A stretch of 60,000 bases of DNA from Bolinopsis microptera (lineage: Eukaryota; Ctenophora; Tentaculata; Lobata; Bolinopsidae), in contig NC_087080.1 of assembly GCF_026151205.1 (NCBI RefSeq), positions 15,511,337 to 15,571,336 on the forward strand, read 5' to 3'. How positions within the stretch are numbered: position 1 is the first letter of the stretch; each line of letters opens with the position of its first letter. Below the pieces are notes generated by a model that saw only the letters and a list, made by a program, of their open reading frames with translations, made no database searches and was not told where the DNA came from. The translations under genes were made by a program, and so were the position numbers. Of the stretch, positions 11,876 to 58,650 are shown piece by piece.

Positions 11876-14800
11876 ATGATTCACCTCAACGACAAAATCC
11901 GTCGACAGAGTCTAAGCCATGATTTAGACTTGGGCAAACGATCCCGACATCTGGCTGGTGATCTGGTGGCTGAAAGTTGTTCGTCCATGAAGAGAAAAGG
12001 AAGCGTTTACGAGGGAAGGTTTTCAACCACTTTACTGAACATACAATATCTCCATCCTGATTCAAAGAGCCTTATCGGGAGCGTTCTACAGCACAGGTGA
12101 ATACTCAGTATAATGTAGTTTAGTTTTTATTACCATGGTTCACCCCTGCTTTGGGTGAATATTCTGGATCACTGAGATTTTCCTCATTTCAACCCCCCTG
12201 ATGGCTGATACTGTAAGTCACTCACCAGTCAGGGTCCATCCCCATCCTTCACCAGATCCAATTCTAAGCTCCGGAACTTTAAACTAGCACGGATGATATG
12301 TCCGTTCGTACTTGCAGACCAAGAAATTCGTTCAACTTCTTCCTAATTATTCTTCACATGTAGCTTTACTGATAAATTGTGAAATTGTTTCGGTTTTCTT
12401 TATTCGTTACCTTCAATCATCTTAAAAACATAACAGTTTGTGCGAGCACCGTTCATCAATCATTGATTGATTGTTATTTGGTTATACGAACCTTTCGTTC
12501 CTTTTTAAAATATTCATACCATTGAAAACATTTCAGGTCCCCCGATATGAGGAGAAAAAGGAAAAGCAAAGAAGACAAAAAACACGCTTGCCTCAAAACA
12601 TATACTGTTACAAAGTGGATATTTTATATTGGTATGTCAAACTGAGTTCAAAGACATAATAATATAAATTCACTAAATAATCAATACAAAAAGTACCACA
12701 ATTATACCATTGGACTACTCATACTATACAATTTAACATTTTATTTCAGCTTGGGCCGCTGCTCTAGGATACACTCTGTTTAATATTTCCAAAAGTCTGG
12801 AAAAGTTCCTTTCAAAACCTGTCAGTACTAAAATCACAGTTTATCATAACGAGGATGGCACGATGCAGTTCCCAACCATATCGCTTTGCAATCTTAACAG
12901 GGTAAGTTTGGAGTAAGTTGTGATCGCTCTGCAATCATAACAGGGTAAGTTTTGATTGAGCTAGTTTTCTCAATTCTATGGTCTTCTTCTTCCGTCAACC
13001 TGAATGTTTGATATTATTTTACAACTTGTTAATAATTATTTGTGGTAATTATTCAACCACACCCTTTTTATTGCGTTCCTAGTGGATACACGTTGAAGAA
13101 TTTATCAAGTTTATTTCAGGTAAATACGTCCTATCTATCCAAAAATCCTGCTCTTCAACGAGTTTGGCAGATTGTCGATGGACGTAAGACATTGTATTTG
13201 TTGACACATATATTTGTTTGCCATCCATGCCACAGTTGAGAATTGAGAATTCGTACCATTTTATTTCTGTCCGATTACTACAAGAGACATAACCATCATT
13301 AAATAATACGCCACAAATTGTAGGCGCTCGCGGGGAACTGGATTGGTCTGATCCTACTACTTCTAAACTGGGTGGAATATTCTATCAAGATATACTCAGG
13401 TAATAAGGGCTTTGAGAACTGTGCACACTTTTACCGTCAAATGATTTGGCTAACACGTGTAAATAAAATTTACACGTGTTAGTTATTCTTATACTCTCCT
13501 TAATAAATGGAATCCTCGATACACTCTGCACTTTGCCTACCGAGTACCACGTGTTAACTGTCTAACATAGTACTTGTTTGCAGAAATTCGGCCTCCTGGG
13601 AGAATACTCTTCTGTTTTGTGCGTATGCCGGGGTGAGACGTTGTTCCGACCTTCCTACCTTCAAGAACATGTCCAACATGGTTGAAGAGGTAAGACTTTC
13701 GTGATACAAATCTTGAAGTTTATTTTATCTTTTCCTTTTTTCTATCAGTTAACTCTTTTCTACTGTGACGTAAATTGTTTCAGGAATTGTCCCCAACTGG
13801 AAAGTGTTATAGATTTAACCCTAAGGGACTGTTATTCTCTAAAGCAGGGGAATATGGGTCGGTGTACCTGAGATTGAACATCAATCTCAGAGAATACGCC
13901 GATAAAAGTAAGCTGTATTGTTATCTGGACATTCAAGCAATTGTTGATCTCCAAATCTTATCATTCGATCATCTCATCAGATAAGGTTTGCATTCAGCCT
14001 AATCCTCCATCTATTTTCAGGTGACAATGGTTTTGTAATGGCAATGCATCACCACACTCAGTACTCTAGTACTCGGAACACGGGCATTGTCATGTCACCT
14101 GGATTTAAATACCGTATTAACATCAAAACTCTCGAGGTAATTTTGTACTTATATAATACATAAAGCTTCAGGTGAACACAAAACTTCCAGATTGTCTGAT
14201 GTGACTTGATATCGTTGAGTTTCTCATTATACTATTACTATCGTCTTGGAGCACTGTCGACGACAACTCCAATATGCATGCTGCAGTTATACTAAATATG
14301 AGTGTCTCTAAAACTAGTGGCTTCCAGCGAACAGAGCTGCCTGTTGAACACGGCGGAAGGTGCAATTCCAGTAACTCCTTCAACAGCTATGGTTCATATG
14401 ATTTGGAGTCCTGTCATACAGAATGCAGGGACAGGTGAGCTTAATCTTTCTTTAAATATTTGATACACTATTTTTATTTCTTTTAGTTATAATTTTGGTT
14501 TTCCATAGACCTTCCAACCTTCCAACACAAACGAAAGATCGAATGGACAGTGTGCCTGCAAGCCTTATAACATTTTATAATACAAGAGTTTCTTCATTGA
14601 CCGTTAAATTGTTAAATTGTTTAATTGTTTAATTGTTTATTGTCAGGGATCTGAACGAGACTTGTGGGTGTATTCCCGTCCTCCCGCCCTTCAATATACA
14701 CGGTTACAAAGCTTGCACTCTCAAAGAAATGTACGATTGTGGTAATCAAGCTTATTTTAACTTCGGTAAGATAAATCCCAAAACATTTCCTTATCTCAAG

Positions 14801-17800
14801 TTTATCCAGCTTGAATTGGAACCATTCTAAGTCAAGTTATAAATTATAATTGCATCAATCGTATGGATGGACCAGATTTTTTGTCTTTTTACAGCAGTTT
14901 GGTCTGTTTGATTCAGACCCAATAATTTATTTATATTCATCTGCAGTTCTAGAGGAGTCAGATACAGAACAGAAGGGTAAACACTCTTGCAACTGCTGGG
15001 TACCCTGCAGACACTACAGTTACGAGCTCTCTACTGCTACCACTGCTATATCCAGGTGGCAATTAATTAGCAGTTAATTAATTAATTAATCATAATAAAT
15101 CAATTAGCAATTAATATAGGATCTGTCTTGAAATTAACCTGGGATTAGTTTTACTGTAGGCATCTTGTCAGTAATACTAATTCAGTATTTGTGACCCAAG
15201 GGTCTTCTCTGGAGGTCACCACTCACCAGACTCAGACACCTGAGGAGACCCTTGGGTCACAAATACTGAATTAATAGATGTATTTTTGCTACAAAAAGGA
15301 AGAACGTGGTAAACGCTATTGAATGTTGTTTGGTAAACGTTTAAGGATAATTAGTGATAATTAAGGATATTAGGGATATTAGGGATATTCCATATTATCT
15401 CATTGGGAAAACCAACATTACTTCTTATCCGATCAACTACGCTCCAAATTAGAGTTAATTAAGATTTCAGTCGCACGGTTGGATACTGGTAAGTGTTTAT
15501 TATTGTTACCGATAAGCACGCCCCGATTGGGGCCAATAAGGTAGCAGATAAACCGATACATGGTAACATAATTACAATACCAGACGGGTTATTGTAAATA
15601 CCTCTGATGAAATACTAACGACCTGTTTAAACTCATTCAATGGCTTAACGAGAGGCCTGCAATCACTGAAAGTGTAAAAATTTTATCTGCCATCTGAACC
15701 TGAAAAGAGACGTCGAAAATTAACTCCAGCATGGCGTGTTCCCGCGATTTCAACCATCAGCTCCCTAAAATTAATACAAGTTCATCTAGACGTTAAGACT
15801 CGTCTAGACCGGATTCTGTAGCGACACACCTTCTCCTGAAGTCTGGACCCCTTGACCACACTCCACCATGGCGAAGTAAAGGTGAAGGGATGAACGGAGT
15901 GACCGATCGGAAAAATTCGATGACATACGTTACTCCTACACTGATTATTTGACTCTTGCGATCTGGGATATATGGGCCCTTGTTGGATGTTGATTCTGAT
16001 TTCTAGATCTCCATATTCTTCGGCATATATATTTGGATATATTCAAAAATCTTGAAAGGTTCAAAGCTGACTTTATGAAAATTTCAGGGAGTATGCCGAG
16101 ACGAAATCTTCTGGTAGGGAAGGAGAAAGACTAAACTTTACAACTGACGATGTTTTGTACGTATTCTGTTTGGTTGGTGGAACTTACCATTATCAAACTT
16201 CCTACTATACAAAATGTGTTCTATTGTGTAACCCGCCAAATAATAATACTGTCAACGGTATTTTTGGTAGCCTTCTCTTGGTCAAACATTATAAAGCATA
16301 ATCGGTAAAAGGGTACTAAAAGATCCAAGTAAGTGGTATATTTCAATGACTCGATGGGTCTGTTTGCAGGATATTAATATTCCTTGGTGGGTATTAGGAC
16401 CCGGTCGGACCTCTTCTGGCTGCACCCCCGATCGTGCGCTACTTAATTAGTGATAGCGGCATCTTAGCATCTAATTGCAGCCACTGATCGATCCCGCTGT
16501 ACTTTGTGGAAAAACTCTTGCTATAAGTTCAAAGGTTCCTCCACAAATTGGCAAACTTGGACGTATTGATGAAGTCGATCGTGAAAAATGATCACTTGGG
16601 CAAGTACTATTATAGTGTATGGCTATAACTATGTTTAACTATCAGATAGCTAAAAATTCTTATAATCGGTTAAAACTTATAATAGCGGCTTAGTGGCTCA
16701 GTTGGTTAATCCGGGCCTGGTATTGCTTGAGGTACCAGGTTCGATTCCCGACTCTGTCACTAGCCGTGGGGTGAGAGTCGTCGACGCTCAGCTAAGGATC
16801 CTGAGTGGTCTATGCAGCCCCCGGTCCACTCAGCCAAATACTCGAGAAATCGGGTGTGAGGGTTAAATGAGGAGCTGCCCATTGCAGCAAAGTCTCGGGC
16901 GAAGAAAGTATGGTACACACTACCTTAACCGTCACTGGCCTAATGTATAATTGAATCCTTCGGCTTCCTGTAATTGGCTGGTTACACACTTGTGTAACAA
17001 TGTGGCTGTTGGAATGTCCGAAGTAAAATAAGATTTGAGATAAAAAAATGACTCGATGGGTCTGTTTGCAGGATATTAATATTCCTTGGTGGGTATTAGG
17101 ACCCGGTCGGACCTCTTCTGGCTGCACCCCCGATCGTGCGCTACTTAATTAGTGATAGCGGCATCTTAGCATCTAATTGCAGCCACTGATCGATCCCGCT
17201 GTACTTTGTGGAAAAACTCTTGCTATAAGTTCAAAGGTTCCTCCACAAATTGGCAAACTTGGACGTATTGATGAAGTCGATCGTGAAAAACGATCACTTG
17301 GGCAAGTACTATTATAGTGTATGGCTATAACTATGTTTAACTATCAGATAGCTAAAAATGCTTATAATCGGTTAAAACTTATAATATTGAATTTTCGAAC
17401 ATGACATGATTTCGTAAGGCCACAATTACCATTTTACTTAAGATTAGAACAATTATTTTCCACTTTACTGTAGTTTGTAAAATTGGATTCGTAATTAGAG
17501 TAATCGAGAATAAGGAAACCTACGTTTACTAACTTATTTTTTACTGTATAATTGGATTGTTTTTTTTCCCGTGTTTTGCTTTCAGACACAAATCTTTTTA
17601 CTATCCTCCTGAGCTATTTGAACCAATGGATAGTTTGTAATTATCACCACAGATAAGTTGGTCAAATATTAGTGCAATTGGGTATCACAGATAAATTGGT
17701 CAAATATTGGTGCAATTGGGTACCACAGATAAATTGGCACAATATTAATGCAATTGGGTACCACAGATAAATTGGCAAAATATTGGTGCAATTGGGTACT

Positions 17801-19078
17801 TATCTTAATTCTTCGCAACAAATGATGGCACCTTGAACAATTCCAACATCATTATCTACTTCTAATTAATAGTTCACGTGGTAACAACTGGTTACCATGG
17901 TCACGTGATTACTTCACCATGGTAACAACTGGTTACTTCACCATGTAGACAGGGTTCTACTCAGCTGGATACTTTATCTAACATCCCACCAGGAAAATAA
18001 TGGTGGTCTGCGGGAAATAGACTTATCTAAATTGCTCTACCCAAAATATTTAATGTCAGCCACTGGAACACCACTGGATGTACAATTACGCGATACTTGG
18101 ACAGGAATTTTTAGATTTTATCTTCAATGACTCGCCATTAGTCGGCTCATAGCAGGAATAAAGAGTGAAACGGTTAACGAGGTAGAGAGATTAATTGGCA
18201 CAGTGAGGTGCTCAGGTGTACATGGAAGGGAACATGCTCATTTATGCTCATTTTTAATTAACCATATTAGGTCTAATCAACAGTGTGAACTGATCAACTG
18301 AATGTTTCATATTTCAGGAAGAATAACATCATCCTGGAAGCATATTTCAGGGATATGTACGTCCAGGAAATCTCACAAATCCCGGAGTACAGCTTTTGGA
18401 ACCTTCTAGGTGAACGGCGAACAAAATTAGTATTTTAAGTTTTTATGTAAATCTGTGCGTTAATTAATTGAACATAATACGGCTGATTTAATCTTCCTCA
18501 CACACACAGCTCCTTATTATCACATGATTATTATAGGAACATAATAATGTGTATATTTGTTTCAAATTTCAGCGGATGTTGGAGGCATGCTGGGTTTGTT
18601 TCTAGGGGCCAGTGTTTTCACTATCATTATTTCAGCGGATGTTGGAGGTATGCTGGGCTTGTTTCTAAGGGCCAGTGTTTTCACTATCATTATTTCAGCG
18701 GATGTTGGAGGCATGCTGGGCTTGTTTTTAGGGGCCAGTGTTTTCACTATCATTGACTTTATCCGCTATGCTATCAACTATACCTATAAGGAGTACAAAA
18801 CACGGTTCAGAGATGAAGAATCGTCCGGATCGAAGAAGAGAAGGAGAAGAAGTAAAGATAAGAACAATAACTTCCTTAATAGTGACAGGGGTGGTAGAAA
18901 GGGTGGGGCACATGTCCCAGGGATTTGCAGCAAACGCCTGAAGAAAACAAAACTTTCACCCTCGGCAGAACGCTCGAAGAGCCACAACTCGTCTTCAGAG
19001 GGTATAAATGGAGCAGGAGAAGATGGCATAAGTGCATTTGATATGAACGGTCAGAATAATGTCTTAAAGCTGATATAA
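11876..19078 (+). CDS. DEG/ENaC sodium channel subunit
   Basis: Fourteen exons: 11876-12096, 12537-12631, 12750-12901, 13120-13183, 13324-13399, 13584-13689, 13784-13907, 14021-14144, 14318-14434, 14647-14765, 14947-15055, 16088-16156, 18318-18409 and 18573-19078. Together they give 1974 nt, 657 residues plus stop. The end of the eighth exon is uncertain: 14144 keeps frame, while 14136 has the other donor. The product is a two-TM, amiloride-type cation channel of the plasma membrane. Seen in order: TM1 (KWIFYIAWAAALGYTLFNIS), the post-TM1 motif FPTISLCNLNR, a Cys-rich extracellular domain with GKCYRFN, CGCIPVLPP and CNCWVPC, then pre-TM2 NNIILEAYFRD and TM2 with GLFLGAS, the selectivity-filter motif. 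The basic, Ser-rich C-tail is cytosolic. The TM2 segment is present three times in tandem. Ligand or stimulus cannot be inferred. Confidence 0.9.
15178..15273. repeat. Long hairpin in a channel intron
   Basis: Arms 15178-15204 and 15247-15273 are 27-bp perfect inverted repeats (taattcagtatttgtgaccc...), extendable to about 33 bp with one mismatch. The loop is about 30-42 nt. It lies in the intron between 15055 and 16088 and would fold into a pre-miRNA-sized hairpin on either strand. It could equally be a tiny inverted-repeat element. Confidence 0.9.
16345..16684. repeat. 340-bp direct repeat, left copy
   Basis: Near-identical to 17047-17386; I see two substitutions in 340 bp. It ends exactly where the tRNA-derived SINE begins. 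It is intronic in the channel gene. No coding content is recognised. Confidence 0.9.
16685..17046 (+). mobile_element. tRNA-derived SINE flanked by 340-bp repeats
   Basis: The head resembles a tRNA gene: gcggcttagtggctcagttg carries an A-box-like region and ggttcgattcc is a B box (about 16739-16749). The body ends in a tail of the form gagataaaaaa, directly against the second 340-bp copy. The element is a 362-bp non-autonomous Pol III retroposon candidate. It differs from the SINE at 3699-3989 in head and body. Confidence 0.75.
17047..17386. repeat. 340-bp direct repeat, right copy
   Basis: Second copy of the 16345-16684 segment, starting aatgactcgatgggtctg and ending ggttaaaacttataata. The two differences noted are at aaaaaYgatcac and aaaaatKctta. 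Confidence 0.9.
17648..17799. repeat. 38-39-bp tandem repeat, four copies
   Basis: Units of cacagataaattggNNaaat...gcaattgggtac, diverged by a few bases, within the last large intron of the channel gene. Confidence 0.85.
18566..18754 (+). repeat. In-frame triplication of the TM2/pore exon start, each with a splice acceptor
   Basis: Three tandem 63-bp units (21 codons) each begin with atttcag|cggatgttgg and encode SADVGGMLGLFLGASVFTII. Candidate acceptors precede 18573, 18636 and 18699. Use of the third gives a conventional channel of 615 residues. Use of the first inserts two extra pore segments (657 residues). Unit 2 changes the filter Gly to Arg (FLRAS; codon 18668-18670). Units 1 and 3 keep GAS. 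Only unit 3 continues into the normal end of TM2 (DFIRYAINY). Confidence 0.93.
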
Positions 19079-32800: not shown

Positions 32801-33920
32801 TTCATATCCTGGGTCCAATAATACCTGGTACCTGGTTCCTGGGAGTAGGTCCCTGCTCAGTGCTTGAACGAGTTTTATTTTCGGGGCAAGTAGCATTATC
32901 GGGCGTGTACTCGTCACGGCAATTGCCCGGTTACGCTCTGAAAGAAAATCAGCTCAGCCGATTTTCAACTTTGGGCTGAATACTGGTCCCGTCAAAGCTG
33001 CAAATCAGTGACAAATTTCTGTCGGGGTTTTTGCCAAAACTTAAATTTCAAAGCGTTAACATCACAAAGAATTAGGTCTTAGCCATGTTTAGCATTTTTA
33101 TCACTCACTTTGTCAAGAAATATATTCAGTGGAGGTTCCCTATTGTTTGCGGGGGACTCAGAGTATGAACCTTATAGCTACTTTGATTATATTTATACTA
33201 GCACATACATCACCATTTTGTAGAGGTATATTGATTTCTAGACTTGTCAGTGACCGGGAGGGCGGATCAAAATTCAGGAATCAGGTCGGTTGACAACTTG
33301 GATAAGCGGTAACGAATAACAACTAATTGAACTGCAGACATCCTGAGTTTGAAAGTATTCATTTGAGCGGATTCCGATGACTATTGGGTGCCTTTCAAGT
33401 CTAAAAACTTATTAGAAAATATCCCACCCGATTTTTCTCCCCGTTGAATTTGAAGATTACACATTTGGAGTTCAACCGTTCTTATACCTAGACACATGTT
33501 TTACTTTAACGTATTCCAGTAGGATTGGGCCCGCGATGCTAATAAGAGGAGTCACTAATGGCAATGTGCCCAATATCAAGTTATTTGAACGTCTCAAGTC
33601 TCAAGTCTCAACTCTCATTGACCGACTTCATTTGTAAAGCTCCTTTTGTCTTTCCATGAGCCTTTGTTCTTGCGAACAAACAACTACTTCATAACAAGGC
33701 TTTGTGTCTCATAACAGTGTGTCTTTGGTGTTATCATTACAAAAGATTCACTGTTCGGATAACTTTCCAACAACAATATAAAATTGTCTGTCCCCACGAG
33801 ACCCCATAATTGTATCTGGCATTCAGTTGTTTCTCTCCTAAAAAGCTTGTCTGTTGTAGTATAACGGCCATTATCATGTGAAGATATGCGATAACAATAA
33901 TCCTGATTTCAACCTGTCAG

Positions 33921-35255
33921 TCTGCAAACCCATACGAAACATGTATCAAAGCAGGCAATTATAAGGAATATCGTGGTACTGAAAGCACAACAGTCAACGG
34001 TGTGAAATATCAAGCTTGGGACTCACAGTCCCCCCACGAACACACCCGTACCGCTGAAAATTACCCGGACACTGGATTGGAAGCGAACTTCTGCAGAGAC
34101 CCTGATGACGAGCCAGGAGTTTGGAGCTATACTACAGACAGTGAAGTCAGGTGGGACTACTGTGATATACCCACGTGCTTTACCACTGATGCCTCCCAGA
34201 TCTGCTCCGAGGGCAAGCAGAAGGATTACAGGGGAGTTATCAGCACGAGTATCTCAGGAGTTAGGTGCCAGGCGTGGGAGTCAGGATACCCTCATTCTCA
34301 CACCAGGGTTCCGGCTAATTACCCCGAGTTCGATCTTGAGGCCAACTATTGTCGAAACCCTGGTTTTTACTTAATCTTATCACAATTACCGATTTAAGGT
34401 TCTTTAATTAACCCGGGAAATAATTCTTGTGGTTATTAAGTTGGGAACCAGACATATTATCCCTCGAAATTTTATCCACCCGCTATTTATCAAGGGTTCT
34501 AGATTTAGAGTTTAGGTTACTGTTGTTAGGGTTATGGTTAGGGTTGGGGTTGGGGCACGATTGTGAGTGGGTGTTAAGTCACGTTAAAGGGTGTGAGTGG
34601 GTGTTAAGTCACGTTTTTGGCTGAGTATTGGGGGTTTAAACGTAGTAAGTGATAACACTATGTAATCCATTCCAGATGATGAGATGAGTGCGTGGTGTTA
34701 CACCATGGACAGTAACAAGCGTTGGGAGTACCTTCTACTAACTGCGAAGAGAGAAAACGGCAGATTAACGCGATGCCTCAGATAGAAGGTGTTCGGATAA
34801 CAGTCAAGGTTGGAAGTGCGACCAAGAACCTGGCTGTCAAGAAGGATGTCGAGTATGAAACCTTCTGGTGTCTGTTTCTTGGGAGTTGTAACGAATTGAT
34901 TGTTGACGATTCTACTGTAACTCTGTGGAACGTTATACCCTTTAAATTTGAAGAAATTCAGTGTTACAGGATAGAAAAGGCCAGTGGCCGTCTATCTGGC
35001 TTGTCCATCAATGCAGAGTTTCCACAAGTCTCATCAAAACAGGCGGTGACTCTAAATCAACCTGAAAACAGAGAAAACTGCTGGGAATTCGTTCCCGTAG
35101 GTGAAAACATTTTCAAGATCAGGAAGAGGTTGGGGAATGAGAATGGAAAGATGTTGACATCAGTTCAAGCTGATGGTGGCGAGTCGTATTCTTTTGTGGC
35201 GATGTCTAAGGTTGAATCTAACAACGTCAGTTTGTGGCAACTAACTAAAGTGTAA
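33921..35255 (+). CDS. Two-kringle extracellular protein with possible beta-trefoil-like tail (5' partial, frameshifted)
   Basis: Exon 33921-34362 follows the acceptor aacctgtcag. It encodes kringle 1 (C at residue 8 to ...YCDIPTC) and most of kringle 2 (ICSEGKQKDYRG...YCRNP). Exon 34676 onward completes CRNPDDE..AWCYTMD..RW in phase 1. At about 34722-34730 the frame breaks: the natural continuation (VPSTNCEERK...) is in another frame and runs open to the stop at 35253-35255. The last ~140 residues repeat a pattern of hydrophobic strands with CYRIEKASG and LWQL, loosely like a ricin-B-type beta-trefoil carbohydrate-binding fold; that is tentative. Kringle 1 lacks the second and fourth Cys (VKYQAW, VWSYTT), which normally pair. 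A signal peptide must be upstream and is not identified. The donor at 34362 (gttttt) is weak. Confidence 0.65.
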
Positions 35256-35822
35256 ACATTCGATAACGGGCAATGTCCGCCCATAACGTATAACTATTTA
35301 CCATGTCAGAAATGTTAAAGAACACGACCAACACATCTGACATCGTGTACCTCGATTAACTGGCCCTTATCAAACCGGAGCACTTTGTTGCCGAACTGAC
35401 CAGACCTTTAACGCAGCTACCACATTTCATGTTTTGTTAGCCCGAAATTCGCAGATAGACTATAAGTATTATAGAAGGAGGTTACCATGATTAAGTAGCT
35501 CAAGCTGTCGAGATTTTGCTGTTTGCGTTACTAATTTTTATTAGCAGTCTTAAATTAAAATATCAAGTTTATAAAATTATTGTCGTATATCATAATACTA
35601 TAATTCTTACGTAGCAATTGGCTTGTGACTTGTACTTGTAGTCCCTATTAGTCTGTATTGATGACGATGTATTAGATACAATATTGTACACCGTACATAA
35701 CATGGACATCAAGCAATGTGGACTGTTGTACAAATTGCAGCAACTCACACCAAAAGCTGTGCATATAGGAACGCGCAAATTGTTGATTGTTATATGTATA
35801 ACAACAAATAATTAAAGGCATA
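35256..35822. other. Intergenic, nothing recognised
   Basis: AT-rich spacer between the kringle gene and the tRNA array. Confidence 0.5.
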
Positions 35823-35904
35823 GCATCGATGGCCGAGTGGTTAAGGCGTCAGACTTGAAATCTGATGGGCAATGCCCGCGCAGGTTCGAACCCTGCTCGA
35901 TGCG
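35823..35904 (+). tRNA. trnS-TGA: tRNA-Ser (TGA), copy 1
   Basis: 82 nt, intronless. Acceptor stem GCATCGA pairs with TCGATGC, discriminator G. Anticodon arm cagactTGAaatctg. It has a long variable arm (gggcaatgccc) typical of tRNA-Ser and the B box GGTTCGAACC. No encoded CCA, as expected for a eukaryote. Confidence 0.95.
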
Positions 35905-35976
35905 ATAATTTTGCAAATGATCAATGATGCGACTCCTGACCCCAGATTTGGAAGAAATTGTTACAGTTTTAACATA

Positions 35977-36058
35977 GCATCGATGGCCGAGTGGTTAAGG
36001 CGTCAGACTTGAAATCTGATGGGCAATGCCCGCGCAGGTTCGAACCCTGCTCGATGCG
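35977..36058 (+). tRNA. trnS-TGA: tRNA-Ser (TGA), copy 2
   Basis: Sequence identical to copy 1, 154 bp downstream. Flanking sequence (ctcctgaccccagatttgga) is also repeated, so the whole unit is tandemly duplicated. Confidence 0.95.
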
Positions 36059-36123
36059 ATACTTTTGCAACTGATTCGACTCCTGACCCCAGATTTGGAA
36101 GAATTTGTTACCGTTGTAATATA

Positions 36124-36205
36124 GCATCGATGGCCGAGTGGTTAAGGCGTCAGACTTGAAATCTGATGGGCAATGCCCGCGCAGGTTCGAACCCTGCTCG
36201 ATGCG
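36124..36205 (+). tRNA. trnS-TGA: tRNA-Ser (TGA), copy 3
   Basis: Identical to copies 1 and 2, 147 bp downstream of copy 2. Stems, anticodon and variable arm are intact. Confidence 0.95.
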
Positions 36206-36278
36206 ATACTTTTGCGACTGATGTGACTCCTGACCTAACCCCAGATTTGGAAGAATTAATTGTTACAGTTGTAATATA

Positions 36279-36370
36279 GCATCGATGGCTGATTGGTTAA
36301 ACTTAAGGCGTCCGTCAGACTTGAAATCTGATGGGCAATGCCCGCGCAGGTTCGAACCCTGCTCGATGCG
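36279..36370 (+). pseudogene. tRNA-Ser pseudogene, copy 4 (D-arm insertion)
   Basis: Acceptor and anticodon arms match copies 1-3, but the D-arm region reads ggctgattggttaaactt and the gene is 10 nt longer (92 nt). The added bases between the D arm and anticodon stem should disrupt the fold and the A box. Confidence 0.85.
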
Positions 36371-36448
36371 ATAATTTTGCAAATGATCAATGATGCGATT
36401 CCTGACCCAAAATTTGGAAGAATTTGTTACAATTGTAAATGTAACATA

Positions 36449-36533
36449 GCATCGATGGCCAAGTGGTTGAGGCGTCACTTTCAAAAATCTGAAGTGCAAT
36501 ACCTGCGCAGGTTCGAATTGCCTGCTCGATGCG
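36449..36533 (+). pseudogene. tRNA-Ser pseudogene, copy 5 (anticodon lost)
   Basis: Both acceptor ends (gcatcga, tcgatgc) remain. The anticodon arm is changed to cactttcaaaaatctgaagt and the T arm has an insertion (ttcgaattgcc). No TGA anticodon loop can form. Confidence 0.85.
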
Positions 36534-36825
36534 ATCCTTTTGCAAATGATGCAATTATTTTGTACTAAAACTTTCCACGTTTGTCCACGTCTGACGTCGA
36601 TCTTATCTCCAGATTTTTAAAAATTTCTAGACACAGTTGTAACATTGAGCATAAAATCAATGGTTGGATCGGACTTCGACGCGCCGTGCAAACTAGCATT
36701 CTTGCTTCACAAACTGAATTTCTTGCTTCGCATCGACGAGATGGTTGCAATTCAACGATCTAAAAGGGTTAACATTGTCAATTATCAATATTGATGACCG
36801 AAATTTGTTTATGGTAGGCAATGCA

Positions 36826-40431: not shown

Positions 40432-42530
40432 AATCTATCTTCTCTACGATCTACGAACTGGGCCCGAGTTACTTGTTTTAAAATACAGCAAATCCATCTT
40501 CTCTACGAACTGGGCCCGAGTTACTTGTTTTAAAATACAGCAAATCCATCTTCTCTACGAACTGGGCCCGAGTTACTTGTTTTAAAATACAGCAAATCCA
40601 TCTTCTCTACGAACTGGGCCCGAGTTAGGTACTTGTTTTAAAATACAGCAAATCCATCTTCTCTACGAACTGGGCCCGAGTTACTTGTTTTAAAATACAG
40701 CAAATCCATCTTCTCTACGAACTGGGCCCGAGTTACTTGTTTTAAAATACAGCAAATCCATCTTCTCTACGAACTGGGCCCGAGTTACTTGTTTTAAAAT
40801 ACAGCAAATCCATCTTCTCTACGAACTGGGCCCGAGTTACTTGTTTTAAAATACAGCAAATCCATCTTCTCTACGAACTGGGCCCGAGTTACTTGTTTTA
40901 AAATACAGCAAATCCATCTTCTCTACGAACTGGGCCCGAGTTACTTGTTTTAAAATACAGCAAATCCATCTTCTCTACGAACTGGGCCCGAGTTACTTGT
41001 TTTAAAATACAGCAAATCCATCTTCTCTACGAACTGGGCCCGAGTTACTTGTTTTAAAATACAGCAAATCCATCTTCTCTACGAACTGGGCCCGAGTTAC
41101 TTGTTTTAAAATACAGCAAATCCATCTTCTCTACGAACTGGGCCCGAGTTACTTGTTTTAAAATACAGCAAATCCATCTTCTCTACGAACTGGGCCCGAG
41201 TTACTTGTTTTAAAATACAGCAAATCCATCTTCTCTACGAACTGGGCCCGAGTTACTTGTTTTAAAATACAGCAAATCCATCTTCTCTACGAACTGGGCC
41301 CGAGTTACTTGTTTTAAAATACAGCAAATCCATCTTCTCTACGAACTGGGCCCGAGTTACTTGTTTTAAAATACAGCAAATCCATCTTCTCTACGAACTG
41401 GGCCCGAGTTACTTGTTTTAAAATACAGCAAATCCATCTTCTCTACGAACTGGGCCCGAGTTACTTGTTTTAAAATACAGCAAATCCATCTTCTCTACGA
41501 ACTGGGCCCGAGTTAGGTACTTGTTTTAAAATACAGCAAATCCATCTTCTCTACGAACTGGGCCCGAGTTACTTGTTTTAAAATACAGCAAATCCATCTT
41601 CTCTACGAACTGGGCCCGAGTTACTTGTTTTAAAATACAGCAAATCCATCTTCTCTACAAACTGGGCCCGAGTTACTTGTTTTAAAATACAGCAAATCCA
41701 TCTTCTCTACGAACTGGGCCAGAGTTACTTGTTTTAAAATACAGCAAATCCATCTTCTCTACGAACTGGGCCCGAGTTACTTGTTTTAAAATACAGCAAA
41801 TCCATCTTCTCTACGAACTGGGCCCGAGTTACTTGTTTTAAAATACAGCAAATCCATCTTCTCTACGAACTGGGCCCGAGTTACTTGTTTTAAAATACAG
41901 CAAATCCATCTTCTCTACGAACTGGGCCCGAGTTACTTGTTTTAAAATACAGCAAATCCATCTTCTCTACGAACTGGGCCCGAGTTACTTGTTTTAAAAT
42001 ACAGCAAATCCATCTTCTCTACGAACTGGGCCCGAGTTACTTGTTTTAAAATACAGCAAATCCATCTTCTCTACGAACTGGGCCCGAGTTAGGTACTTGT
42101 TTTAAAATACAGCAAATCCATCTTCTCTACGAACTGGGCCCGAGTTACTTGTTTTAAAATACAGCAAATCCATCTTCTCTACGAACTTGGCCCGAGTTAC
42201 TTGTTTTAAAATACAGCAAATCCATCTTCTCTACGAACTGGGCCCGAGTTACTTGTTTTAAAATACAGCAAATCCATCTTCTCTACGAACTGGGCCCGAG
42301 TTACTTGTTTTAAAATACAGCAAATCCATCTTCTCTACGAACTGGGCCCGAGTTACTTGTTTTAAAATACAGCAAATCCATCTTCTCTACGAACTGGGCC
42401 CGAGTTACTTGTTTTAAAATACAGCAAATCCATCTTCTCTACGAACTGGGCCCGAGTTACTTGTTTTAAAATACAGCAAATCCATCTTCTCTACGAACTG
42501 GGCCCGAGTTACTTGTTTTAAAATACGACA
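40432..42530. repeat. 52-bp satellite array, about 40 copies
   Basis: Unit: acagcaaatccatcttctct, then acgaactgggcccgagttac, then ttgttttaaaat. Copies are almost identical. Three units (near 40625, 41513 and 42088) carry the same 4-bp insertion (gagttaggtacttg), and a few single-base variants occur. The first unit is a longer, diverged form. There are no unique spacers, so this is not CRISPR. Confidence 0.98.
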
Positions 42531-56319: not shown

Positions 56320-58257
56320 CTATTTTCTTGTGTTTGAAGTGATTAAGACGTTAAAAACAATCAAACACCAGTAAATTTTGCCATTAGTTATAGCAGAACT
56401 TGTTGTGCAACTAAACGTTTTCTCGCAATCGTGTCCATCGTCTGGGAGGTCTTCTGAAACATCTTCATCTGGGATGTCACCTTCGAGAGTAACAGCTTGT
56501 GTGGTCATAAGAGAATAACCCTTGGTGTTTAGTGTAATTGAGCACGTGAAAGTGTGTTCATCTCCAACCTTTTTTAAAACAATCAAGTTCTCACTTGTTA
56601 GAGTTAGGGAAGACGTCTGGGTCCCATCTTTATATACTCCGTCTTTAGGACTGTAAGAGTTGTCCGTTTTGGTGTCTGTCATCCATTCAATGCCAGAAAC
56701 TTGTCCGCTGAGCCCTTCCATGACACAGTTGATAGTGTGATCCTCCATTATGTTCGCACTTATGACAGGAGGTGTTATCACAGCAGTCGGGCATTTCTCT
56801 TGACCACAGCTTTCCCAACCCTTCGTAGTCCGAACATGACACATAACACCAAGGCTCAGGGTCATCTGCCCCAGGATTTCGGCATAAATTTCCACCTCCG
56901 TCTGTTAAGCCGTCATCAGGATATCTGTTGGGTTATAGTCTCTATCTACTTCCCATGAAATGCAATTGAATCCGGACTTTGATATATCCACATCCCCTCT
57001 GTAGTCGCTTCCACTAGTAGCCTCTTTATAGCACTCTTCATAGGGTTCTTCAAAAATGAGTCTGTGTGTGGCTGTCATCGTGATCTCGTAATCTGGGACT
57101 TTGACTGTGCAGGTAAATTTAATTACACCCTCACCAGCGTTTTGTAGTGCAATTAGGTTCTCCTTAGTCAATGTTAGCGATGAAGTCTGGGTCCTATCTG
57201 CATACACTCCGTCTTGAGGACTGTAAGAGTTGTCTGTTTCCCTGTCAGTCGTCCATTCAATGCCAGAAACTTGTCCATAGATCCCTTTCACGACACAGTT
57301 GATAGTGTACTCCGACGTATACATTGTGATTCGTTTGTTTTGAGGTGTTATCACAGCAGTCGGGCATTTGTCTTGACCACACTCTTCCCAACCAGCACTG
57401 TCGTCCAACAGTGACACATAACACCAAGGCTCAGGGTCATCTCCATCAGGATTTCGGCATAAATTTCCAGCTCCGTCTAATAAGCCGTCATCAGGATTTA
57501 CTGTTGGGTTATAGTTATGACCTATTGTGTCCCATTTAATGCAATTGAATCCGGACTTTGATATATCCACATCCCCTCTGTAGTCGCTTCCCCTAGTAGC
57601 CTCTTTATAGCACCCTTCATAGGGTTCTTCAAAAATGGGTCTATGTGTGGCTGTTATCGTGATCTCGTAATCTGGGACTTTGACTGTGCAGGTAAATTTA
57701 ATTTCACCCTCACCAGCGTTTTGTAGTGCAATTAGGTTCTCCTTAGTCAATGTTATCGATGAAGTCTGGGTCCTATCTGCATACACTCCGTCTTGAGGAC
57801 TGTAAGAGATGTCTGTTTCCCTGTCAGTCGTCCATTCAATTCCAGAAGCTTGTTCCTTGATGTTGTTCACGACACAGTTGAAAGTGTACTCCGACTCATA
57901 CTTTGTGACAATTCGTTTGTTCTGAGGTGTCATCACAGCAGCCGGGCATTTCTCTTGACCACACCCTTCATAACCTGCGTAAACGTCCATCCATGACACG
58001 AGACACCAAGGCGCAGGGTATATTCCCCCAGGATTTCGGCATAAATTTCCGCGTCCGTCTGCTAAGCCGGCATCGGTATAATTTTCTGGGGTAAAGCTAT
58101 TATCATTCTCCCATAAGAGGCATTGGAATCCGGACTTTGATGTAGCTAAATCCCCTCTGTAGTCTTGTCCAAAAGTAGCCTCATTATAGCACCCTTCATA
58201 AGGATTTTCAGCGTTCGACAACTCAACAGTCGCGAATAAGACCATTAGCCAAAACAT
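56320..58257 (-). CDS. Secreted/surface protein with three kringle-Ig modules
   Basis: Apparently intronless. Residues 1-16 are a signal peptide (MFWLMVLFATVELSNA). Kringle 1 is residues 23-104, with all six Cys (23, 46, 73, 85, 99, 104) at standard spacing. An Ig-like domain follows (FNCVV ... IEWTTD ... FTCTV), then kringle 2, Ig 2, kringle 3 and Ig 3. The C-terminus has an acidic Pro/Asp stretch, then a short hydrophobic YWCLIVFNVLI and a basic end, which suggests membrane or GPI anchoring. Modules 2 and 3 are nearly identical at DNA level. The frame is broken inside kringle 3: a stop at 56905-56907 and a stretch (about 56935-56820) that reads correctly only in another frame, after which the original frame resumes. 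Either the allele is damaged or the assembly has two compensating indels. Kringles bind proteins or membranes; the target here is unknown. Confidence 0.8.
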
Positions 58258-58650
58258 TACACCTGCAGGAGAGGAAACATTTGAAATATATCTGGTTTGT
58301 TACAAAAAGTGTTGTTACAAAAAATGTTCATGGGAAATGGAATCGTATGATTCGCTATAAATAATAAATACCTTACGAGACATATTTGAATGGTACGAAA
58401 GTCGGTGGTTTTTCGAAAAAAAAAACACCATATTTTCGGACTACCAAAATTTAGGTCACCGTCATTATTTTCCCCAAATTATTTATCACGTATTTTCCTT
58501 AATTAATTATGACTTTATCGATTTGCTATCAATATAGTAACTTATAAATATGATTCACCAAACAAATGAACAGCAGAGTAAATCAGATTGACTACGTCTG
58601 TATTTCTACCAAGTGGAGTCACTCTCTACTTGACGTAAGATCATGCAGAT
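58258..58650. other. Upstream region of the kringle-Ig gene
   Basis: AT-rich; no promoter motif stands out. Confidence 0.35.

What the first reader, a model, noticed from the sequence alone, without database searches (positions are those of the whole stretch)
18566..18754. Channel pore exon triplicated in frame, each copy with its own splice acceptor
Three 63-bp units each start with a usable acceptor (atttcag) and encode the DEG/ENaC TM2 start and selectivity filter. Because each unit is 21 codons, all three acceptors give an open frame: one, two or three pore segments. Copy 2 replaces the filter Gly with Arg (FLRAS). If the upstream acceptors are ever used, the cell would make channel variants with extra or altered pore segments. 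This is a natural test of alternative 3' splice-site choice at a pore. I know of no described DEG/ENaC with this arrangement.
Basis: partly seen in the sequence, partly recalled or inferred. Interest (0 to 1): 0.82.

Follow-up and report, generated by a model that had tools for sequence, protein, structure and literature searches.

The report
Repeated splice site at channel pore
In a comb jelly's sodium-channel gene, a short stretch holding a splice site and the start of the pore has been copied three times in tandem; similar copied splice sites turn up in sister genes, so this is probably accidental repeat growth that may or may not add extra pore pieces to the protein.

Summary
At 18566-18754 there are three head-to-tail 63-bp units, 95-97% alike. 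Each has 7 nt of intron end (ATTTCAG) and 56 nt of pore exon, with in-frame acceptors at 18573, 18636 and 18699. The host is an open 14-exon DEG/ENaC gene model, nearest in the PDB to ASIC5, in a 13-chromosome ctenophore genome, probably Bolinopsis microptera. The 32 other pore exons found there have one unit each; 10 share the intron position.

"No described arrangement" needs changing. Minisatellites that duplicate intron-exon boundaries are a published kind, "mirages", in lancelet genes, where splicing is reported undisturbed. Sister genes here carry them too: the closest paralog compared has six copies of another acceptor (67-70 nt apart, stops inside), two others have acceptor-bearing arrays, and two have duplicated donors. 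Arrays span no more exon edges than random placement gives (6 against 10.7 ± 3.3). The open frame is weak evidence: none of 63 possible transitions makes a stop.

Best reading: a young neutral mirage, with the normal channel made mainly from 18699. Extra-pore isoforms are possible but unshown. New: a silent change in copy 2 makes a good donor (18647), perhaps a nascent 51-nt intron.

The parts
11876..18409 (+). Exons 1-13 of the DEG/ENaC gene model (11876-12096, 12537-12631, 12750-12901, 13120-13183, 13324-13399, 13584-13689, 13784-13907, 14021-14136, 14328-14434, 14647-14765, 14947-15055, 17586-17636, 18318-18409)
   Evidence: Joined frame open; PF00858 206.7 bits. Start codon and exon 17586-17636 are inferred; adding that exon raises the Pfam score from 199.4 to 206.7 bits.
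18410..18572 (+). Pore intron (if acceptor 1 is used); phase-1 position before A/G-D-V/I-G-G
   Evidence: Same position in 10 of 32 sister pore exons
18566..18628 (+). Unit 1: acceptor 1 (exon start 18573) plus pore segment ADVGGMLGLFLGASVFTII
18629..18691 (+). Unit 2: acceptor 2 (exon start 18636) plus pore segment with filter Gly to Arg (FLRAS)
18645..18653 (+). Donor-like site gag|GTATGC in unit 2 (last exon base 18647), created by the silent C-to-T change at 18649; with acceptor 3 it bounds a possible 51-nt intron 18648-18698
   Evidence: score 8.15, 1.4% of 3,498 + strand GT sites score as high; next best in the array 0.75
18692..18754 (+). Unit 3: acceptor 3 (exon start 18699) and the pore segment that continues into the rest of TM2
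18699..19078 (+). Exon 14 as expected without the duplication: rest of TM2, tail, stop
   Evidence: matches Pfam ASC 432-455 (protein 1)

Best explanation
A young "mirage"-type minisatellite. A 63-bp stretch made of the last 7 nt of the pore intron and the first 56 nt of the pore exon of a ctenophore DEG/ENaC gene was tandemly duplicated to three copies by ordinary repeat expansion (unequal exchange or slippage: inferred); tandem arrays are common in this genome. Each copy carries a whole acceptor because the TM2-coding end (GTTTTCACTATCATT) supplies a pyrimidine tract for the next copy's ATTTCAG. Most likely the mature mRNA mainly joins 18409 to the exon-proximal acceptor 18699 and gives a normal single-pore channel, units 1-2 being removed with the intron (inferred from lancelet precedent and from the sister array in L023). 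Use of 18573 or 18636 would add 42 or 21 residues and is possible as a minor product. Selection for the extra copies is not shown.
For: Array and unit anatomy; open gene model; one pore match in each of 32 other pore exons and identical intron position in 10, with no tandem array over any of them. The closest paralog among the loci compared (L023, same contig, 45-67% identical in 9 of 10 exon matches and 32% in the other) has six tandem copies of a different acceptor plus exon start at 67-70 nt spacing; from the first five the frame meets a stop. Two further loci carry acceptor-bearing arrays: L052 35 nt x2 and L024 48 nt x25.6. Two carry duplicated donors: L055 54 nt x2.1 and L056 31 nt x2.4 (splice sites placed by eye from the open frames). 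No excess of arrays at exon edges: 6 of 196 edges against a random mean of 10.7, sd 3.3. Lancelet mirages: same anatomy, 6 and 3 copies in two haplotypes, RT-PCR suggesting undisturbed splicing (restated).
Against: No transcripts were available. Acceptor 1 keeps the old intron context and is the first strong AG after it, so simple first-AG choice would favour it and include all three units. All three acceptors score alike. Units stay in frame, with 3 of 4 substitutions silent, as constraint on protein would give (weak: P 0.06-0.14).
Confidence: 0.7

Rival explanations
1. Upstream acceptors are used in substantial amounts, giving subunits with two or three pore segments, or only the three-unit form because the first AG wins. 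Arg-filter or extra-segment subunits would be non-conducting or dominant-negative in the trimer.
For: Acceptor 1 lies in the ancestral intron context; scores 12.0, 13.5, 13.5; all three joins open; mean hydropathy of each unit core is 1.7-1.9, above that of TM1 at 1.1.
Against: Lancelet mirages reported not to disturb splicing. L023 must skip five similar acceptors to make protein. An extra 21 or 42 residues inside TM2 would be expected to break the pore (inference).
Confidence: 0.22
2. A nascent intron inside the array: the silent change in copy 2 made a donor at 18647 that pairs with acceptor 3 (51-nt intron), as the published mirage model of intron gain would suggest. With acceptor 1 the product is unit 1 + ADVG + unit 3, in frame and without the Arg filter.
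For: Donor score 8.15, above 9 of the 13 leave-one-out scores of the gene's own donors; next best in the array 0.75. Exon pieces 18573-18647 and 18636-18647 are 75 and 12 nt, multiples of three. Model in PMC3087553.
Against: 51 nt is shorter than every intron of this gene model (94-2530 nt). A site type met at 1.4% of GTs is not rare. No transcript evidence.
Confidence: 0.04
3. Assembly artefact: one unit in the animal, three in the assembly.
For: If the genome is the published B. microptera one, it was assembled with wtdbg from PacBio reads and polished with Illumina reads, and the 189-bp array is longer than a usual short read (recalled). A published lancelet mirage appeared wrongly assembled in a draft.
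Against: The three copies carry four private substitutions and no indels. Similar arrays occur in sister genes.
Confidence: 0.04

Closest known systems
Mirage minisatellites of lancelet genes (Adh3, globins BflGb6 and BflGb9, troponin C, PGBD5)
   Same: Head-to-tail copies of a stretch spanning an intron-exon boundary, units of 10 to 160 bp, high identity, splice signals inside many copies (PMC3087553 passages; PMC3902484 passages)
   Different: Ctenophore, not lancelet; unit mostly exon (56 of 63 nt) and in frame, over a channel pore; transcripts and copy-number variation untested
DEG/ENaC channels, nearest solved relative ASIC5 (BASIC)
   Same: PF00858 positions 19-455 of 455, 206.7 bits; best PDB match ASIC5, E 2.6e-31; LLAD.GG.LGLF.GAS shared in that alignment
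   Different: Extra pore units in the gene; no phylogeny done, so orthology to ASIC5 is not claimed
Variable tandem repeats at exon-intron boundaries of human segmental duplications (PMC2812944)
   Same: Tandem repeats at exon-intron edges that can alter splicing and form new introns (abstract and passages)
   Different: Human paralogs with transcript support; here none
NAGNAG and other tandem acceptors
   Same: Competing acceptors in a row that keep frame
   Different: Spacing 63 nt and created by duplication (papers seen only in a search listing)

Membership tests
Mirage minisatellite | Tandem copies of a segment spanning an intron-exon boundary | tested here: met
   7 nt intron + 56 nt exon, three copies
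Mirage minisatellite | Unit length and identity in the described range (10-160 bp; 81-100% in BflGb6) | tested here: met
   63 bp, 95-97%; ranges
Mirage minisatellite | Copy number varies between haplotypes | not testable with these tools
   One copy of the locus in the held assembly
Mirage minisatellite | Regular splicing not disturbed | not testable with these tools
   No transcripts held
DEG/ENaC (PF00858) | Family domain from TM1 to TM2 with the G-x-S filter | tested here: met
   profile positions 19-455 of 455; ASIC5 alignment
DEG/ENaC (PF00858) | Trimeric cation channel | not testable with these tools
   No expression possible
ASIC5/BASIC orthology | Groups with ASIC5 in a tree | not tested
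   Only best PDB similarity seen
Tandem mutually exclusive exons | Each copy bounded by acceptor and donor with introns between | tested here: not met
   Units abut; only one good donor-like site in the array, in copy 2

The most novel reading that the evidence does not exclude
The animal makes and uses DEG/ENaC subunits with two or three consecutive pore segments (one with an Arg filter) by choosing among the three acceptors, or the array is caught in the act of becoming a new intron through the donor created in copy 2: a repeat accident turned into channel diversity.
Probability: 0.08. Interest if true: 0.75.

Novelty: new member of a known kind. Interest (0 to 1): 0.42.

Why it matters
Structures named mirages turned up only in lancelets in my searches; related boundary repeats are known in human duplicated genes. 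Here such arrays sit in a ctenophore, in six loci of one gene family. They offer natural series for testing 3' splice-site choice: three equal in-frame acceptors here, six acceptors in L023 whose first five lead to stops, and an array of about 26 units in L024. These would show whether the exon-proximal or the first AG wins, and how tandem duplication feeds intron gain.

Tried and rejected
Mutually exclusive exon choice: rejected, no introns or paired splice sites between units. Selection inferred from the open frame: rejected, since none of 63 possible transitions gives a stop and 3 of 4 silent changes is not unusual. Enrichment of arrays at splice sites: rejected, 6 observed against 10.7 ± 3.3 by random placement, 10% of placements giving 6 or fewer. 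That count uses tblastn match edges, not exact exons, outside the window, and it missed the L052 and L024 acceptor arrays that I found by eye. It also includes L024 3151-3194 and L050 19-109, which I did not check base by base. In one search tblastn returned only 2 of the window's 3 units, so its one-unit result was cross-checked by overlaying TRF arrays on the pore matches: of 37 loci only L001, the window's own, has an array over the pore. PDB search with iGluR L005 did not identify the organism; L004 did. Structure prediction was not used: the spliced protein is not a contiguous reading of the window. Related ctenophore genomes are not in the collections offered.

The protein pasted (second protein) and 11 was read by eye, lacked exon 12 and had a wrong start for exon 9; with the scripted model replace them. 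One search compared the window protein with L007-L027 only, so 'closest paralog' means closest of those.

Full report
Observation. Each begins ATTTCAG and carries 56 nt of exon coding ADVGGMLGLFLGASVFTII; copy 2 has Arg for the filter Gly. Joining the exons by script gives one open frame with one terminal stop for each acceptor, 18573, 18636 or 18699. A matrix from 22 acceptors (12 in this gene, 10 pore-intron acceptors of sister genes) scores the three at 12.0, 13.5 and 13.5; only 0.15-0.24% of the window's 3,286 AG sites score as high.

Host gene and organism. The window is part of contig C9 (17.4 Mb) of a 264.65-Mb assembly in which a 611-base query over the region had one match. An iGluR from the same genome matches the ML032222a receptor best in the PDB (that ML names are Mnemiopsis leidyi is recalled). 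C1-C13 hold about 97.5% of the bases (lengths, summed by hand; C14 is 0.2 Mb, later contigs not looked at). Bolinopsis microptera is reported with 13 chromosome-scale scaffolds holding 97.23% (PMC10232365, passages; section 12). The organism is thus a ctenophore, probably that species or a close one. The gene model has 14 exons from 11876 to 19078 and scores 206.7 bits to PF00858; the best PDB match is ASIC5. The start codon and exon 12 (17586-17636) are inferred; adding exon 12 raises the Pfam score from 199.4 to 206.7 bits.

Sister genes. A family search listed 70 matches in the genome (such counts are lower bounds). I fetched all listed matches that reach profile position 450 or beyond, plus a few others. 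Of 42 loci searched, 37 had a pore match; removing the window's own and four repeat fetches leaves 32 distinct sister pore exons, each with one pore match. Because that search saw only 2 of the window's 3 units, I overlaid TRF arrays on the 37 loci: only the window's own locus has an array over the pore. Ten of the 32 have an intron at exactly the window's position and phase. The five loci without a pore match were L042, L044 and three short fetches made only for contig lengths. The closest of the loci compared, L023 on the same contig, has ten exon matches, nine at 45-67% identity and one at 32%, and shares the TGGAACCTTCTAG donor and the CAG|CGGATGT acceptor.

The same kind of event elsewhere. 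In L023 a different acceptor, before VLKESDVDHKP, stands in six tandem copies at 67-70 nt spacing, each with pyrimidine tract and AG; from the first five the frame meets a stop, and only the sixth leads into the exon. L052 has an acceptor and exon start twice at 35 nt spacing; from the first copy, in the frame that is open from the second, there is a stop after 12 codons. L024 has 25.6 copies of a 48-nt unit with CCCCCACCAG, ending just before an open frame that I take for the exon. L055 has a donor and exon end about twice (54 nt), and L056 a donor about 2.4 times (31 nt). Splice sites in these sister loci were placed by eye. So of 15 loci examined, the window's included, six carry arrays that repeat a splice site. 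Random placement of the same arrays would span 10.7 (sd 3.3) of 196 exon edges; the automatic count found 6, not the same six loci. Splice sites are therefore not targets; the genome is simply rich in such arrays (6.7% of these 94.9 kb).

What is known. Tandem repeats spanning intron-exon boundaries were named "mirages" in lancelet Adh3 and reported in globin, troponin C and PGBD5 genes (PMC3087553 passages; PMC3902484 passages). The globin paper reports 6 and 3 units in two haplotypes, RT-PCR suggesting undisturbed splicing, and a model in which such repeats create introns. I read neither paper whole, and the original Adh paper was not found by the DOI I recalled. Human tandem repeats at exon-intron boundaries can alter splicing (PMC2812944, abstract and passages). 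In listings of searches on such structures I saw no ctenophore case; one search listed 15 of 50 papers and one search listed 10 of 29, so this is no proof of absence. For DEG/ENaC with this arrangement I saw none in the listings (15 of 92; 15 of 18).

How it probably works. Expansion of a 63-bp unit by exchange or slippage is inferred. Differences are star-like: 1, 2 and 1 private changes, all C-to-T or G-to-A, which suits a young array. The open frame is weak evidence of coding use: none of 63 possible transitions and only 4 of 189 possible single changes makes a stop; 3 or more silent of 4 has P 0.14 for transitions and 0.06 for all changes. A period divisible by three has a prior chance of one in three. 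I think 18699 is used most, by analogy with lancelet and with L023, where a working protein needs the last acceptor. Against this, 18573 keeps the old intron context and is the first strong AG; this is not settled.

The silent change in copy 2 at 18649 makes gag|GTATGC, score 8.15, within the range of the gene's own donors (leave-one-out 0.1 to 10.5); 1.4% of 3,498 GT sites score as high, and elsewhere in the array nothing exceeds 0.75. With acceptor 3 it would bound a 51-nt intron, in frame, removing the Arg filter. The gene's introns run from 94 nt upward, so this is a long shot.

Verdict. Real, correctly described, a new member of a known kind, in a phylum where my searches saw none; its effect on the channel is undetermined. 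Interest 0.42.

Noticed in passing
L023 1521-1930 (G000 C9, about 1.2 Mb from the window): Six tandem copies of an acceptor plus exon start, 67-70 nt apart, the first five leading to stops, in the closest paralog compared: a natural competitor series for 3' splice-site choice.
   Followed up: yes
L024 1564-2796; L052 8005-8074; L055 1424-1534; L056 4793-4867: Arrays that repeat acceptors (first two) or donors (last two) in further DEG/ENaC loci.
   Followed up: partly
window 16345-16644 and 17047-17346: Two identical 300-nt direct repeats 702 nt apart inside the long intron 11; the DNA between has a tRNA-like stretch, perhaps a SINE (by eye; ARAGORN calls no tRNA there).
   Followed up: no
window 35819-36552: Tandem array, period 147, with three tRNA-Ser (TGA) genes called by ARAGORN.
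   Followed up: no
window 40450-42526: 52-bp unit repeated 39.7 times, 98% matches.
   Followed up: no
window 33882-34397 (+) and 56320-58299 (-): Open frames that look like kringle-type domains (recalled motif, no search made).
   Followed up: no
L025 and L035 (G000 C7): Two similar DEG/ENaC genes, each matching the family in a single open frame, with 54-bp tandem arrays just past the pore end; could be a varying tail.
   Followed up: no
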